DNA from: Phycisphaerae bacterium
GTDB taxonomy: Bacteria > Planctomycetota > Phycisphaerae > Phycisphaerales > Phycisphaeraceae
Reading direction: 5' to 3'
Length of the DNA: 64,000 nucleotides
NCBI GenBank assembly: GCA_030425705.1
Contig: JAUHZU010000003.1
Span: forward strand, 310,001-374,000
Of this stretch, positions 3,186-44,501 are shown one piece after another (the stretch's first letter is position 1; the number at the start of each line of letters is the position of its first letter). The position numbers were made by a program, and so were the translations under genes. The notes beneath the pieces are model-generated. The model worked only from the letters and a program-made list of their open reading frames with translations. It searched no databases and was not told the DNA's origin.

Positions 3186-4610
3186 CTACTGCAACGTGTC
3201 GCTGTACGCCTGCGCGACTTCTTCGGGGGTGACGCCGGCACGCAGCTGATCGAGGATCTCCGTGTCCATCGGCCAGCCCAGGCCGGTCAGGTCCTGGATG
3301 TAGACGATCTCCGGCAGCGTCGCGTTGTCGCCGATCGTCGGTGAGACGTCGAGCACGACCCGCAGGCGGCAGAAGCCCCGGCCGTCCTCGGTCACCGCGA
3401 CGACATCGACCGTGAACTGCGTCGATCGGTTAGTCAGCCGGCCGGCGACGGCGGTGGCTTTCTCTTCACCCAGCGTGTCGACGATCCAGGCGATGCTGCC
3501 CGGCGGCTCGTCCGCGGCCAAGACCGGGCGGTCGGCAACGAGCAGCTCGCCGTCGCCGGGCTTCATGCCCGGCAGCGCATTCAGCACGTCGGCCGACGCG
3601 GTGTAGACATCCACCAGCCCGGTCCGTTCGTCCTGACCGCTGGTCGTGAGCTTGTCGTGCATCGCGTCGAACTCGGCTTCGGTTAGCTCGTTGCGGATGT
3701 AGAAATCCAGCACATTCTCGTAGGGCCGGTTGTCGTCGATCGTGCCCGCCAGCTCCGCGAAGCGGTCTTCATCGACCAGGTCATTGAGCAGCGCGCCCAG
3801 CTCCTGGCTGCGCTGCTGGATGTTGATGCGCTCTTCGCCCGTCAGGTCGGTGTTGGGCTCGGAGCTGTAGACGGTGGTGAATGCGGCGAGGCCGCGGTTG
3901 AGGGAGCCGTCGGCGTTATCGTCGACGCCGGACGCGTCGCCGTCGTCCTCGGTGGGGTCGAGCCGGCCGTTCTGGTTCGTGTCTTCGCCGAACAGCACAT
4001 CGGCGTTGAACCCGCGGACCATCGCGAGTTCACCGATCGTCTCGAACGGCCCGTCCTTCGCGTTGTAGGGCGTCGGGCGTGTGAGGTAGTAGTCGGACTC
4101 CGCGCCGCCGGGGGCGGTCTCGGTGTCGTCGTCGCGCCAGTCGATAATCGCGGCGGCGTTGTTTTCGGTCATGCCCGGCAGCTCGATGAGCATCTCGTAG
4201 GTGGCGTTGTTGAGGTTGAGCTTGCTGGACTCGCCGGCGATGCCGTAGACGTGCTGCGTGTCGTCGTTGTAGTCGGGCCCGATGAGCCAGTAGACCGTGC
4301 CACCGACCCGGCCACCCGCGGCGGGTACGTCCGAGAGGCGGGGCGATTCGCCGTTGGCGATATCCTGGGCGAGGTCGCCGCGGACCGCCTCGATGACGCC
4401 GTAGGCCGCCCATCGCGCCTCAGCGACGGCGGCGTGGTTGGTCGCGGCCATCGCCTCGGCCCGCATGCTGTACGCGAAGACGAGCACCAGCGAGGCGAGC
4501 ACGGTGACGACCAGCAGCGTGATGATGAACGCCGCGCCGGCGCAGCGCCGACCATGCACCGCGTTGCCGCGGGTGGACGGAGCCGGGTTGTGCTGGGTTG
4601 GACGGTGCAT
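3186..4610 (-). CDS. gspK: Type II secretion minor pseudopilin GspK
   Basis: 474 residues with the layout of GspK: a basic leader, a prepilin cleavage site at about GAAFIITLLVVTVLASLVLV, one long hydrophobic helix and a large periplasmic domain. As in other GspK proteins, the glutamate normally found at mature position 5 is missing. The helical inserted domain shows helix-hairpin-helix-like stretches (NATYEMLIELPGMTENNAA and YTASADVLNALPGMKPGD), and there is an acidic Asp/Asn-rich segment (DTNQNGRLDPTEDDGDASG) resembling the calcium-binding loops of this family. It caps the pseudopilus tip with GspI and GspJ. It lies 9 bases after gspJ. Confidence 0.88.
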   Translation of the reverse strand: MHRPTQHNPAPSTRGNAVHGRRCAGAAFIITLLVVTVLASLVLVFAYSMRAEAMAATNHAAVAEARWAAYGVIEAVRGDLAQDIANGESPRLSDVPAAGGRVGGTVYWLIGPDYNDDTQHVYGIAGESSKLNLNNATYEMLIELPGMTENNAAAIIDWRDDDTETAPGGAESDYYLTRPTPYNAKDGPFETIGELAMVRGFNADVLFGEDTNQNGRLDPTEDDGDASGVDDNADGSLNRGLAAFTTVYSSEPNTDLTGEERINIQQRSQELGALLNDLVDEDRFAELAGTIDDNRPYENVLDFYIRNELTEAEFDAMHDKLTTSGQDERTGLVDVYTASADVLNALPGMKPGDGELLVADRPVLAADEPPGSIAWIVDTLGEEKATAVAGRLTNRSTQFTVDVVAVTEDGRGFCRLRVVLDVSPTIGDNATLPEIVYIQDLTGLGWPMDTEILDQLRAGVTPEEVAQAYSDTLQ

Positions 4611-4619
4611 CGTTACGGT

Positions 4620-5354
4620 TTAGAAGCTGAACAATCCCCCGCCGCCGAGCCCGCCGCCGCCGGTGGACGACGCGGGAAGCGGGGCCGTAGGCAATCGGAT
4701 CAGGCGGACGATGGTGATGTCGTCGCCGTCGATATCGTTGTCGGGGTGTTCGCGTTGCTGTTCGGGGCGGAGCGTGAGCGTGACCTCGATCGCGAGGGGC
4801 AGCGTGTCGTCCTGCTCGGTCGAGTCCCAGTCGTCCAGCCAGTCGCCGCCGTCGAAGTAGCGCGCGTTGAACGCGACGACGCCGCGGGCGAGCACCTGCG
4901 TGGTGGGCTGCGGGGTCGTGGACGCGAGGAGGTTGGCCGTCACGTAGCGCACCAGCAACTGGGTGTCGTCGCGCTCGGGGTCGTCGGCCAGGGCGATCTC
5001 GACCCCTCGCAGGTCGCCGAGGTCGTCCGCGGTCGGCAGCGTCGGCGAGGCGGTGACGAAGGAGAGCTGGTCGGCTTCCCTTGCCGCGCCCATCCGGCCG
5101 TCGCTGCCCAGGAACGGACCGGCGATCCGGCCCGTCGGCGACAGCACCGCCGAGACGTCCGTCGCCAGCAGGTCCAGCGACACCCGCGCCGCCTGACGCC
5201 CGGCCAGCCGGTCCTCCGCGCGCTCCCGGGTCTGGAACGCGATCCGCATGCTCGTGAACAGCGTCACCGAGATCAACGCGGTGATGACTACCGCGAGGAT
5301 GACCTCCATCAGCGTGAAGCCGTTGCGGGACGGGCGTAGGGTGTCGCGACGCAT
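4620..5354 (-). CDS. gspJ: Type II secretion minor pseudopilin GspJ
   Basis: 244 residues with a short basic leader and the prepilin signature GFTLMEVILAVVITALI, cut after the glycine by the prepilin peptidase. The globular part is large, like GspJ (bigger than GspH or GspI). The ATG at 5354-5352 overlaps the TGA of gspI, which fixes the start; a longer open frame upstream belongs to gspI in another frame. GspJ joins GspI and GspK at the pseudopilus tip. The C-terminus is Gly-rich. The identification as J rather than another minor pseudopilin follows from size and from the H-I-J-K order. Confidence 0.82.
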   Translation of the reverse strand: MRRDTLRPSRNGFTLMEVILAVVITALISVTLFTSMRIAFQTRERAEDRLAGRQAARVSLDLLATDVSAVLSPTGRIAGPFLGSDGRMGAAREADQLSFVTASPTLPTADDLGDLRGVEIALADDPERDDTQLLVRYVTANLLASTTPQPTTQVLARGVVAFNARYFDGGDWLDDWDSTEQDDTLPLAIEVTLTLRPEQQREHPDNDIDGDDITIVRLIRLPTAPLPASSTGGGGLGGGGLFSF

Positions 5355-41623: not shown

Positions 41624-41784
41624 GCGGCCATGGTACCCGGCGGGGGAGCGAAAAGAGGCAGGTGCGGTTCATATGTTGCTAGAGCCGCGCTAGAGTTTGC
41701 TGAAACGCGGAGCCTGTGGCTGCGTCGTGTGTCTTGACGGGGGTGTTAGGATATTGGAGCGGTCGATAGATCAGGAGTATTGCG

Positions 41785-42981
41785 ATGGGCTCAGGCAGGC
41801 GGATCGAGCGGTGGTGCTTCTGGGTTGTCGTGTGGGCGGTGCTTGCGGGGCTTGTTATGCCTGCGGCCCAGGCATCTGCATCCCTGAACGGGCTGACCGA
41901 GGCGCGGGCGGGGGAGTTGCACGAACTGCTCACGCCGGACCCGGAGGCGGTCTGGCGGACGATCCCGTGGATGACGTCGGTGTTGGAGGCGCAGCGGGAG
42001 GCGTTGGAGAAGGGCCGGCCGATCTTTATCTGGGCGATGGATGGGCACCCGCTGGGGTGTGTGTGAAACAACGGCGTGTTCGACCGTGCGTCGACCTTTG
42101 CCGAACCGGATATCGTTGCGATGCTGCAGCAGGACTTTGTGCCGGTAGCGATCAACCAGGCCTTCCAACGCCGACAGCAGGACGGCGAGGGGGCGTTCTA
42201 CCGCCGGATCGCGTCGCAGGGCCCGCGCGGCGGGGGCGACTGGTCGCAGACGACCCAGGGCTTCTACATCGCCACGCCGGACGGCGAGCTGCTGCTCTAC
42301 AACAACAACCGCAACCCCGAACGGCTGCGTCGGCTGATGCGCGAGGCGCTCGAGGCCTTTGCCCAGCGCGAGCCGGTTGAGGCCGACCCGGCCGAGATGG
42401 GCGAGCGTGACCAGCGGTTCCACCCCGAGCCGCCAGAGGGCGGGCTGATCGTCCGTGTGCACGCGAAGGTGCTCGGCGGGTACAAGCCTACCGAGGACCC
42501 GGTGCGGCAGATGTTCCAGGAGGCGCTGTCGCGGGACAACCTCTGGGTCACCGCCGAGGAACAGGACGTGCTGACGCGCGACGAGCTGCCCGAGACGTTG
42601 GCGCGGCGGATCGCGCTGTACCACCTGATCGACAACACCCGCGGCGAGCCGACGATGTGGCGGCCGCACCACATCCGCAAGCTGGAGATGACGCTGGTGG
42701 GGGGTGTGCTCCGCGGGTCGGTGCACCTGGAGAGCGAGGGGGGCGACACCGGCTACGAAGCGGAACTGTTCGGCCGGGTATCGGTTGAAGATGGCCGGGT
42801 CGCCGGTTTTGAGCTTGCAGCGGAGGGGGACTACTGGGGCCATACGCGGTACACGCCTGGCTGCCCGGAGGGTCGGTTCCCGCTGGCGGTGGTGTTCCGT
42901 CTGGCGGACGGGGAGGACGCGGCAGACACGATCCCGCCCCAGGCCCATGGGTGGTGGGGCAGCGACTATCTGCCGCGCTAA
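41785..42981 (+). CDS. Probable selenoprotein with thioredoxin-like domain (in-frame UGA read as selenocysteine)
   Basis: One frame runs 41785-42981 with a single in-frame TGA at 42064-42066, giving 398 residues with Sec at position 94. The start has AGGAG seven bases upstream. A signal peptide comes first (hydrophobic to AAQASAS). Upstream of the TGA the sequence is RPIFIWAMDGHPLGCV, downstream it is NNGVFDRASTFAEPD and then QQDFVPVAINQ, as in thioredoxin-like domains, giving a C-x-U redox site (Cys92, Sec94). A SECIS-type hairpin follows the UGA. The C-terminal half is of unknown fold. Reading it as two genes would leave the second without a start or ribosome site. Cellular location is probably periplasmic. 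Confidence 0.8.
42064..42102 (+). promoter_or_regulatory. Bacterial SECIS element after the UGA codon
   Basis: TCGAC (42080-42084) pairs perfectly with GTCGA (42090-42094) around the loop CGTGC, with T at 42079 bulged and G42078-C42095 below it; GGC and GCC at 42073-42075 and 42100-42102 may close the base. Counting U of UGA as 1, the loop G and U fall at 23 and 24, the same positions as G23 and U24 in the E. coli fdhF SECIS, and the bulged U at 16 or 17 matches U17. This is the layout SelB binds. Confidence 0.8.
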
Positions 42982-43037: not shown

Positions 43038-44501
43038 ATGCGAACTTATCTGTCTGCCGTGACTCGGCACCTGACCGGGGTGATGGGGTGTCTGCTGTTT
43101 GCTTTGGCCGTGTTCTGTGTGGCGGGCACGGCGGTCGCCCAGCACAACCCGGCGGGTCAAGATGGGGAGGCACGGCCCAACGTCGTGGTGGTCTATATCG
43201 ATGACATGGGCTGGTCGGACCTGTCCTGCTTCGGCGGCGAGCCCGGGCTGACGCCGCAGATCGATCGCCTGGCGGCGGAGGGCTTGCGGTTCAGCCAGTT
43301 CTACGTGAATGCGCCGATCTGTTCGCCGTCGCGCTGCGCGCTGACGACGGGGCAGTACCCCGCGCGGCACCGGATCACCTCGTACCTCGCGGAGCGGTCG
43401 GCCAACGATCGCCGCGGGATGGTGCAGTGGCTGCCGCTGGATGCGCCCACGTTGCCGCGGATGTTCTCGGAGGCCGGCTACCGCACCGGGCACTTCGGCA
43501 AATGGCATCTTGGCGGGCAACGGGACGTCGGGGAGGCGCCGCTCGTCTCGGAGTATGGCTTTGACGCCACGCTCACCAACTTCGAGGGGCTTGGGCCACG
43601 GCTGCTGCCGCTGTGCGATGCGTATGACGGCAGCGAGCCGAGGCCGCACGCTCTGGGCAGCGACCGGCTCGGGCGGGGGCCGATCGTGTGGATGGACCGG
43701 TCGCGGATCACCGAGGGCTTTGTCACGCGGGCGGTCGAGTTTATCGACGCGTCGGTCGCGCAGGGCCGGCCGTTCTATATCAATGTTTGGCCCGACGATG
43801 TGCATTCGCCGTTCTTCCCGCCGGCCGACCTGCGGGGGGATGGCGGGAAGCGGGCCCGCTACCTCGGGGTGCTGCGTGCCATGGACCAGCAGCTCGGCGT
43901 ACTGTTTGAACGCCTCCGGGACGACCCGGTGCTCCGGGAGAACACGCTGGTGCTGCTCGCCAGCGACAACGGCCCGGAGCCGGGCGCGGGCCAGGCCTGG
44001 CCGCTGCGCGGGCACAAGGGCCAGCTATATGAGGGCGGGGTCCGCAGCCCACTGATCGTCTGGGGGCCGTCGCTGGTCGAGCCCGTGGCGGTCGGTTCGG
44101 TGAATGATGCGACGGTGCTATCGAGTATCGACCTGGTGGCGTCCCTGATCGTCTGGGCCGACCTGCCGCTGCCTCCGGGGTTTGAAGCGGATGGCGAAGT
44201 GCTGATCGACCAACTCATGGGACGCTCCACCGCGCCGCGGACCGGACCGCTGTTCTGGCGTCGCCCCCCGGACCGGCCCGGGCCGGCGGACGACCCGCTC
44301 CCCGACTTGGCGGTCCGAGACGGCCGGTGGAAGCTGGTGTGTCGCTACGACGGGGCAGGCGCCCGGCTGTTTGATCTGATCGAAGATGTCGGCGAGAGCC
44401 GGGATGTCTCCCCCGACCACCCCGAAGTTGCCCGGCGCCTGTTGCAGGCGGTCCTGGCTTGGAACCAGACCCTCCCTCGCGACGGCGGGCAGCGGCCCTA
44501 G
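43038..44501 (+). CDS. Sulfatase (formylglycine-dependent arylsulfatase family)
   Basis: 487 residues from ATG 43038. An N-terminal hydrophobic signal ends at AVAQ. The calcium-binding start VVVVYIDDMGWSDLSCFGG and the sulfatase signature CSPSRCALTTGQYPARHR are clear; Cys95 would become formylglycine. GYRTGHFGKWHLGG and LLASDNGPEPGAGQAWPLRG carry the remaining metal and substrate residues. Planctomycetes often have many sulfatases for sulfated polysaccharides of algae. The substrate cannot be told from sequence. It starts 56 bases after the selenoprotein gene, on the same strand. Confidence 0.92.
   Translation: MRTYLSAVTRHLTGVMGCLLFALAVFCVAGTAVAQHNPAGQDGEARPNVVVVYIDDMGWSDLSCFGGEPGLTPQIDRLAAEGLRFSQFYVNAPICSPSRCALTTGQYPARHRITSYLAERSANDRRGMVQWLPLDAPTLPRMFSEAGYRTGHFGKWHLGGQRDVGEAPLVSEYGFDATLTNFEGLGPRLLPLCDAYDGSEPRPHALGSDRLGRGPIVWMDRSRITEGFVTRAVEFIDASVAQGRPFYINVWPDDVHSPFFPPADLRGDGGKRARYLGVLRAMDQQLGVLFERLRDDPVLRENTLVLLASDNGPEPGAGQAWPLRGHKGQLYEGGVRSPLIVWGPSLVEPVAVGSVNDATVLSSIDLVASLIVWADLPLPPGFEADGEVLIDQLMGRSTAPRTGPLFWRRPPDRPGPADDPLPDLAVRDGRWKLVCRYDGAGARLFDLIEDVGESRDVSPDHPEVARRLLQAVLAWNQTLPRDGGQRP

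What the first reader, a model, noticed from the sequence alone, without database searches (positions are those of the whole stretch)
41785..42981. Probable new selenoprotein: thioredoxin-like, UGA-encoded Sec with a bacterial SECIS
Seen directly: one reading frame is interrupted by a single TGA at 42064-42066; sequence continues without disruption on both sides, the start has an ideal AGGAG site, and the part after TGA has no start or ribosome site of its own. A hairpin follows with a bulged U and a GU in the apical loop at 23-24 bases from the UGA start, the same positions as in E. coli fdhF. Known: SelB needs exactly these features. Inferred: a C-x-U redox centre in an exported thioredoxin-like domain, of a family I cannot name.
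Basis: partly seen in the sequence, partly recalled or inferred. Interest (0 to 1): 0.93.

Follow-up and report, generated by a model that had tools for sequence, protein, structure and literature searches.

The report
Selenium-dependent protein family without cysteine versions
The interrupted gene encodes an exported, thioredoxin-fold protein in which a stop codon is most likely read as selenocysteine, and it belongs to a large, apparently uncatalogued bacterial family in which I did not find this selenium site replaced by ordinary cysteine.

Summary
In detail: ORF 41785-42981 is cut once, by TGA at 42064-42066, with a hairpin (42080-42094) whose loop has G23 and U24.

It is very probably a selenoprotein gene. 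The genome has selA, selB, tRNA-Sec and a TGA-containing selD. In a scan of 84,980 species, 80 of 80 relatives kept (377 found) have TGA at this codon. Protein conservation spans the TGA. The hairpin survives synonymous change: 91 of 96 group A sequences keep the whole stem, against 16% expected. In the phylum, 89 of 97 genomes with a strong match have tRNA-Sec; the other eight are incomplete assemblies, and three of these carry Ser or Pro at the site.

New: of 128 rows read at codon level, 120 have Sec, 6 Ser, 1 Asp, 1 Pro, none Cys. A 2025 paper says all known selenoproteins seem to have Cys homologues. No Pfam or NCBIfam model and no entry of a 2026 catalogue that I read describes this family; weak matches exist.

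The first domain models as an exported thioredoxin fold with Sec at the nucleophile position. The partner Cys, usually at -2, is lost or shifts to -1 in relatives. A selenol-based envelope reductase or peroxidase is inferred; nothing was tested experimentally.

The parts
41773..41777 (+). AGGAG, Shine-Dalgarno-like site 7 bases before the ATG
   Evidence: read directly
41785..42981 (+). selenoprotein ORF, 398 aa with Sec at residue 94, TAA stop
   Evidence: homologues with TGA at the same codon in 80 of 80 kept loci and 7 of 7 class loci
41785..41880 (+). probable signal peptide, residues 1-32 (by eye; helix 7-32 in the model)
   Evidence: no signal-peptide program was run
41941..42375 (+). 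thioredoxin-fold domain, residues 53-197
   Evidence: predicted model; Z 13.8, rmsd 2.4 over 118 residues with 3f9u_B; Foldseek alone gave no match at E up to 0.001
42058..42060 (+). Cys92 codon, partner cysteine at -2
   Evidence: not invariant
42064..42066 (+). UGA codon for Sec94
42080..42094 (+). SECIS-like hairpin, 5-bp stem and loop CGUGC
   Evidence: full stem in 91 of 96 group A sequences against 16% in the synonymous null; pair 18-30 of four Watson-Crick types
42406..42978 (+). C-terminal mostly beta domain, residues 208-398
   Evidence: model of the part alone, mean pLDDT 92.8; no assignable fold match

Best explanation
The gene encodes an exported selenoprotein. Supported by sequence evidence here: UGA at codon 94 is decoded as selenocysteine by SelB and tRNA-Sec, directed by the hairpin 14-28 bases beyond the codon. 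Supported by the model: after a signal peptide the protein folds as a thioredoxin domain followed by a mostly beta domain. Sec lies just before the helix after the first core strand, where thioredoxins carry the first Cys of CxxC; the second Cys position is Gly. Inferred: the selenol attacks a peroxide, disulfide or similar substrate in the cell envelope; the selenenyl intermediate is resolved by Cys92 where that is present and otherwise by an external thiol; the C-terminal domain supplies substrate or partner binding. Also inferred: the reaction needs selenium, because lineages that lose Sec go to Ser, Pro or Asp, not to Cys. The confidence given is for 'selenoprotein of an uncatalogued family'. 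For a redox role I would say 0.7; for any particular substrate under 0.3.
For: Full Sec machinery in the genome: selB 345 bits (cut-off 242), selA 520 (268), selD 362 (125) with its own TGA, tRNA-Sec 64.9 (47), anticodon TCA. TGA at the same codon in 80 of 80 kept relatives and 7 of 7 class loci. Equal protein conservation on both sides. Synonymous conservation of the hairpin and compensatory changes, at least 7 between Watson-Crick types at pair 18-30. Co-occurrence with tRNA-Sec, 89 of 97 strong-match genomes against 141 of 295 others. Thioredoxin fold in the model.
Against: No protein or 75Se data. The general SECIS model is nonspecific here (300 of 400 control TGAs pass). Group B keeps its full stem in only 8 of 14, and sequences were put in the group they fit better. 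6 of 24 genomes of a second set that hold the gene showed no tRNA-Sec. No Rfam SECIS match. Nothing fixes the substrate; neighbours are not conserved.
Confidence: 0.93

Rival explanations
1. A genuine stop: pseudogene, assembly error, or two separate genes, the second starting at GTG 42076.
For: A GTG follows ten bases on.
Against: The same TGA is found in 80 of 80 kept relatives of many independent assemblies; both sides equally conserved; no ribosome site before the GTG; the hairpin is kept by compensatory changes.
Confidence: 0.02
2. TGA is read as an ordinary amino acid by a changed code or by plain read-through, without selenium.
For: An open frame under TGA=residue is no proof of Sec.
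Against: TGA also ends the gene in 36 of 80 relatives; tRNA-Sec and SelB are present; of the eight strong-match genomes without tRNA-Sec three have Ser or Pro, not TGA.
Confidence: 0.01
3. A selenoprotein, but of an already described family, for instance the VPGUxxT thioredoxin-like family or a candidate in the unread S9 Table of PMC4807772.
For: 43 of 86 members match NF041383 (VPGUxxT type 2) weakly, best E 4.2e-4. PMC4807772 lists candidates of a Rhodopirellula in a table that I could not open.
Against: The window protein matches no NCBIfam model at E up to 1. No entry of the catalogue of 119 families, as far as read, bears the motif.
Confidence: 0.1
4. Sec serves as a metal or metalloid ligand (Met85, His88, Cys92, Sec94) and not as a redox nucleophile. 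Compatible with being a selenoprotein.
For: M85, H88, P89, C92 and Sec94 are invariant in 86 of 86 aligned members. One distant C-U relative carries a Metal_resist domain (L173).
Against: Cys92 is missing in a few Sec members; His and Met are not kept in the C-U relatives; the fold is a redox fold.
Confidence: 0.2

Closest known systems
Thioredoxin_7 (PF13899), Thioredox_DsbH/DUF255 (PF03190), DsbD C-terminal domain
   Same: Thioredoxin fold in the model; the first Cys of their CxxC aligns with Sec94; weak Pfam matches, 46 of 86 members to PF03190 and 29 of 86 to PF13899 at E up to 0.1
   Different: Second Cys of CxxC is Gly; extra Cys at -2; Sec instead of Cys; large C-terminal domain; the window protein scores 14.2 bits against the Thioredoxin_7 cut-off of 27
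VPGUxxT family thioredoxin-like (seleno)protein, NF041383 / NF041382
   Same: Thioredoxin-like, Sec; weak matches of 43 and 3 of 86 members
   Different: Best E only 4.2e-4, none for the window protein; motif VPGU, here GHPxGCxU
Bacterial SECIS elements, E. coli fdhF as example (fdhF details recalled)
   Same: Hairpin just after UGA; loop of 5, stem of 5 bp, G in the first two loop bases, spacing 18, energy below -7.5: the window meets the four constraints of the model quoted in PMC13188914
   Different: No conserved bulged U; subgroup B has its loop 4 bases further on, mostly RGUC
Catalogued CxU selenoproteins (rhodanese form 3, UshA-like, ferredoxin-thioredoxin reductase, Sec.1)
   Same: C-x-U motif by the table of PMC13188914
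   Different: Other domains; none is reported as a match of the window protein in NCBIfam

Membership tests
Bacterial selenoprotein | selA, selB, selD and tRNA-Sec in the genome | tested here: met
Bacterial selenoprotein | in-frame UGA conserved in homologues, with conserved flanks | tested here: met
   80 of 80 kept relatives, flanks
Bacterial selenoprotein | Cys homologues at the Sec position (usual rule, not strictly defining) | tested here: not met
   0 Cys in 128 rows; Cys only in distant thioredoxin-like domains; 297 relatives unseen
Bacterial selenoprotein | selenium in the protein | not testable with these tools
   needs 75Se or mass spectrometry
Bacterial SECIS (general model, PMC13188914) | loop 3-9, stem 4-16 bp, G in first two loop bases, spacing 16-37, energy at most -7.5 | tested here: met
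   window and 108 of 110 family sequences, but also 300 of 400 control TGAs
Bacterial SECIS | structure kept by selection | tested here: met
   91 of 96 against 16% (group A), 8 of 14 against 2.6% (group B)
fdhF-type SECIS | bulged U at 17 (recalled) | tested here: inconclusive
   U17 in 94 of 96, but it can pair with base 31 and its codon position is constrained by the protein
Thioredoxin_7 (PF13899) | score over the Pfam cut-off | tested here: not met
   14.2 bits against 27
Thioredoxin fold | three-dimensional fold | tested here: met
   on a predicted model only: Z 13.8 with 3f9u_B, residues 53-196
CxxC thiol-disulfide oxidoreductase | two active-site cysteines three apart | tested here: not met
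   second position is Gly97 in 86 of 86 rows, alignment
VPGUxxT selenoprotein (NF041383) | match to the curated model | tested here: not met
   no match of the window protein at E up to 1; weak in 43 of 86 relatives

The most novel reading that the evidence does not exclude
A Sec-obligate superfamily: exported thioredoxin-fold proteins of Planctomycetota and Verrucomicrobiota in which selenium, not a dithiol, is the constant, its cysteine partner sits at -2 or -1 or is absent, and Cys cannot stand in for Sec, so that loss of Sec ends in Ser, Pro or Asp. It would do a reaction that sulfur does not support, and discovery methods based on Cys/Sec pairs could not see it.
Probability: 0.5. Interest if true: 0.87.

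Novelty: new variant of a known kind. Interest (0 to 1): 0.77.

Why it matters
Much selenoprotein discovery relies on Cys homologues. PMC12013277 says that its method may miss families lacking them and that all known selenoproteins now seem to have them (passage). This family is common (97 of 392 genomes of the phylum match at E up to 1e-15), yet no Pfam or NCBIfam model covers it, so its genes are probably annotated as fragments (inferred). If Cys truly cannot replace Sec here, the family makes an open question directly testable: why selenium is kept where cysteine usually suffices.

Tried and rejected
Rfam over the locus at E up to 10: one chance match, HIV_FS2, 17.9 bits against a gathering score of 44. 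The general SECIS model as evidence: rejected as nonspecific. Solved-structure sequences with the profile: 0 matches at E up to 1. Foldseek against PDB with the whole model and with the C-terminal domain: no match at E up to 0.001. VIA-align on the C-terminal domain: best Z 5.5, no family assigned. Plasmids: no match. Viral contigs: 111 stretches matched a pattern, none a relative. Phylum of a Verrucomicrobiales genome: 6 of 288 genomes match; two strongly, both with TGA, one of them the centre of the search itself (G755); the other four are distant CxxC proteins. The class searched again with the profile: the same 6 of 397 genomes. Gene neighbours: the commonest clusters occur in 10 of 81 loci, so no operon explains the function.

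What the counts leave out. One search found 377 relatives and kept 80; 297 were not seen. Its pattern held GC before the Sec but not the Sec codon, so members without that motif are missed. A2 has 86 rows: window, 6 class loci and 79 of the 80 (L050 left out by oversight). A3 used 44 of the 85 parts listed. In one search, 120 TGA loci collapse to 110 distinct 63-mers, and each was put in the group whose stem it fitted better, which favours the observed; the null ignores kinship. In one search rows with under 200 filled columns and L112, L115, L142-L144, L146-L151 were left out (several are duplicates or fragments; L144 has TGA); 122 of the 128 rows are different. In one search the weak match L148 shows a Cys at the column in a stretch without the motif, which I do not count as a Cys member. 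L173 lies one column off in the automatic reading. One search scored four candidates per genome and cut its list at weak matches. One search treats genomes as independent.

Full report
1. Observation. The frame 41785-42981 is as described: ATG with AGGAG seven bases upstream, one in-frame TGA at 42064-42066, TAA at 42979-42981.

2. Machinery. The window lies in a 4.1-Mb assembly, 98.7% complete. On another contig, within 8.3 kb, are selD with its own in-frame TGA (motif GGUAGKLP), selB, selA and tRNA-Sec with anticodon TCA.

3. Relatives. Of 397 genomes of the class 6 match, with 7 loci, each with exactly one TGA, at the same codon in GHPxGC[TV]U. A scan of the 84,980-species collection with a pattern that leaves out the Sec codon found 377 relatives; 80 were kept and 80 of 80 have TGA there. 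Their titles name Planctomycetota and Verrucomicrobiota, one Kiritimatiellia assembly (two loci) and some unassigned bacteria. TGA also ends the gene in 36 of these 80, which speaks against a changed code. Leaving out the first 40 residues, identity is the same before and after the TGA: 34 of 53 and 191 of 302 against L018, 30 of 53 and 170 of 299 against L025, 32 of 53 and 175 of 301 against L024. Differences at codon positions 1, 2, 3 against L018 are 13, 13, 16 before and 71, 68, 135 after: the excess at position 3 is slight before the TGA for L018, clear for L025 (20, 17, 36) and L024 (15, 14, 28).

4. Hairpin. Group A (96 distinct sequences) has stem 17-21/27-31 and a loop that mostly reads CGUGC or CGUGA; group B (14) has stem 20-25/31-36 with a loop that mostly reads RGUC. 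Each sequence was recoded 200 times with synonymous codons drawn from its own local usage. The full group A stem is present in 91 of 96 against a mean of 16% (maximum 27%), group B in 8 of 14 against 2.6% (maximum 21%). Grouping by best fit and kinship favour the observed. Pair 18-30 joins two third-codon positions, so its variation is largely synonymous. It is C-G, T-A, G-C or A-T in 102 of 104 rows, with at least 7 changes between these types on the protein tree, each a change on both sides. The general SECIS model is met by 300 of 400 random window TGAs and so proves nothing alone.

5. Co-occurrence. Of 392 genomes of the phylum 116 match the profile at E up to 0.001 and 230 have tRNA-Sec at E up to 1e-9. 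Of the 116, 99 have tRNA-Sec; of the 97 at E up to 1e-15, 89 do (Fisher p 4e-16, genomes not independent). The eight others are all under 90% complete: G488 and G560 (86% each) carry Ser and G670 (61%) Pro at the site; G493, G551, G597, G656 and G664 are 79, 84, 67, 87 and 81% complete, and a missing tRNA-Sec may be a gap. Against: in a second set of 24 genomes with the gene 6 showed no tRNA-Sec (completeness not told).

6. No cysteine. At codon level, 128 rows with at least 200 aligned columns have Sec in 120, Ser in 6, Asp in 1, Pro in 1, Cys in 0; the tree needs 4 changes between Sec and non-Sec. G557, G682 and G735 keep GHPLG but have lost both the Cys at -2 and Sec although tRNA-Sec is present. 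Cys at the site was seen only in distant thioredoxin-like proteins that match the first domain (WCPPC, TCRGC): their first Cys aligns with Sec94, the second with Gly97. PMC12013277 (passages) says that all known selenoproteins now seem to have Cys homologues; PMC13188914 (abstract and outline, passages, parts 1 and 2 of section 7) says nearly all. Rare Cys forms are not excluded: 297 relatives were not seen, and one search scored only four candidates per genome.

7. The partner cysteine. Cys is at -2 in 118 of 120 TGA loci picked by a pattern allowing C, A or V there. Exceptions: GHPLAAGU (L134), GHPCAVVU (L139), GHPAGETU (L152) and GHVLGRTU (L149, partial). More distant proteins found with the same profile have Cys directly before Sec: FCUHNG (L178), DCUNNG (L175), RCU[VI]FA (L171, L172, L173, L176, L177), HCULGG (L180), ECULGG (L168), NCUAGS (L169). 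These ten match no selenoprotein model of NCBIfam at E up to 0.01. So the constant of the wider group is Sec, not a CxU pair.

8. Structure. The model of the window protein with 86 rows has mean pLDDT 92.8. Residues 53-197 resemble thioredoxin folds: 3f9u_B Z 13.8 (rmsd 2.4, 118 aligned), then AGR3, ERp19, Thioredox_DsbH and DsbD entries. Sec94 directly precedes helix 95-102. Q158 and G159, where thioredoxins have their cis-proline (recalled), are invariant in 86 of 86, as are W254, E259, D283 and G287 in the C-terminal domain. That domain alone models well (pLDDT 92.8) but has no assignable match.

9. Function. A signal peptide, a redox fold, Sec at the nucleophile site and no second active-site Cys suggest a selenol peroxidase or reductase of the cell envelope (inferred). 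Neighbours do not decide: the next gene in the window is a sulfatase, and in 81 loci the commonest neighbour clusters occur in 10. In 7 of 81 loci a convergent neighbour belongs to the cluster of an oxidoreductase-SelD fusion protein, identified on one member, L055.

10. Novelty. Paper searches on planctomycete selenoproteins, new bacterial families, missing Cys homologues and the motif showed no description of this family. I read passages of PMC4807772, PMC12013277 and PMC13188914 as told above; the rest I saw as listings. The catalogue of PMC13188914 (119 families, table) has no entry with this motif; its VPGUxxT family matches 43 of 86 members weakly (best E 4.2e-4) and the window protein not at all. 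PMC4807772 reports candidates of two planctomycetes in a supplementary table that I could not open, so the gene may be listed there. I call it a new variant of a known kind: a selenoprotein family for which no Cys form was found.

Noticed in passing
L171, L172, L173, L176, L177: Larger exported proteins (491-646 aa frames) with an in-frame TGA in RCU[VI]FA, 32-47% identical to L176, hairpins after the TGA, no selenoprotein model in NCBIfam: probably a second uncatalogued selenoprotein family.
   Followed up: partly
L168, L169, L175, L178, L179, L180: Further distant relatives with in-frame TGA in ECULGG, NCUAGS, DCUNNG, FCUHNG, GCTUQQG and HCULGG.
   Followed up: partly
L157:4089-7775 (G000:C14): Between selD and selB lie a lipoprotein-like ORF (4089-5081, resembling a binding protein by eye), an ABC ATPase and a permease by Pfam and a second permease-like ORF: a candidate selenium importer.
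   Followed up: no
L055:4374-6566: Oxidoreductase-SelD fusion protein converging on the family gene; its cluster recurs in 7 of 81 loci.
   Followed up: partly
window 43038-44501: Sulfatase gene 57 bases after the selenoprotein gene, same strand; its neighbour cluster occurs in 7 of 81 loci, in varying orientation.
   Followed up: partly
window and L018 against L019-L023: In the tree the window and its genus mate lie among Planctomycetota and Verrucomicrobiota sequences of group A, apart from the five other loci of their class: possible gene transfer (quick tree, long branches).
   Followed up: partly
L146 (G436:C42:50031-52293): Two family genes in tandem, both with TGA; that genome lists four matches.
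   Followed up: no
392 genomes of the phylum: 230 of 392 have a tRNA-Sec over the Rfam cut-off, so selenocysteine use is widespread there.
   Followed up: no
window 41791-42948, minus strand: A 385-aa ORF lies antisense to the selenoprotein gene, likely a shadow of the G+C-rich coding strand.
   Followed up: no
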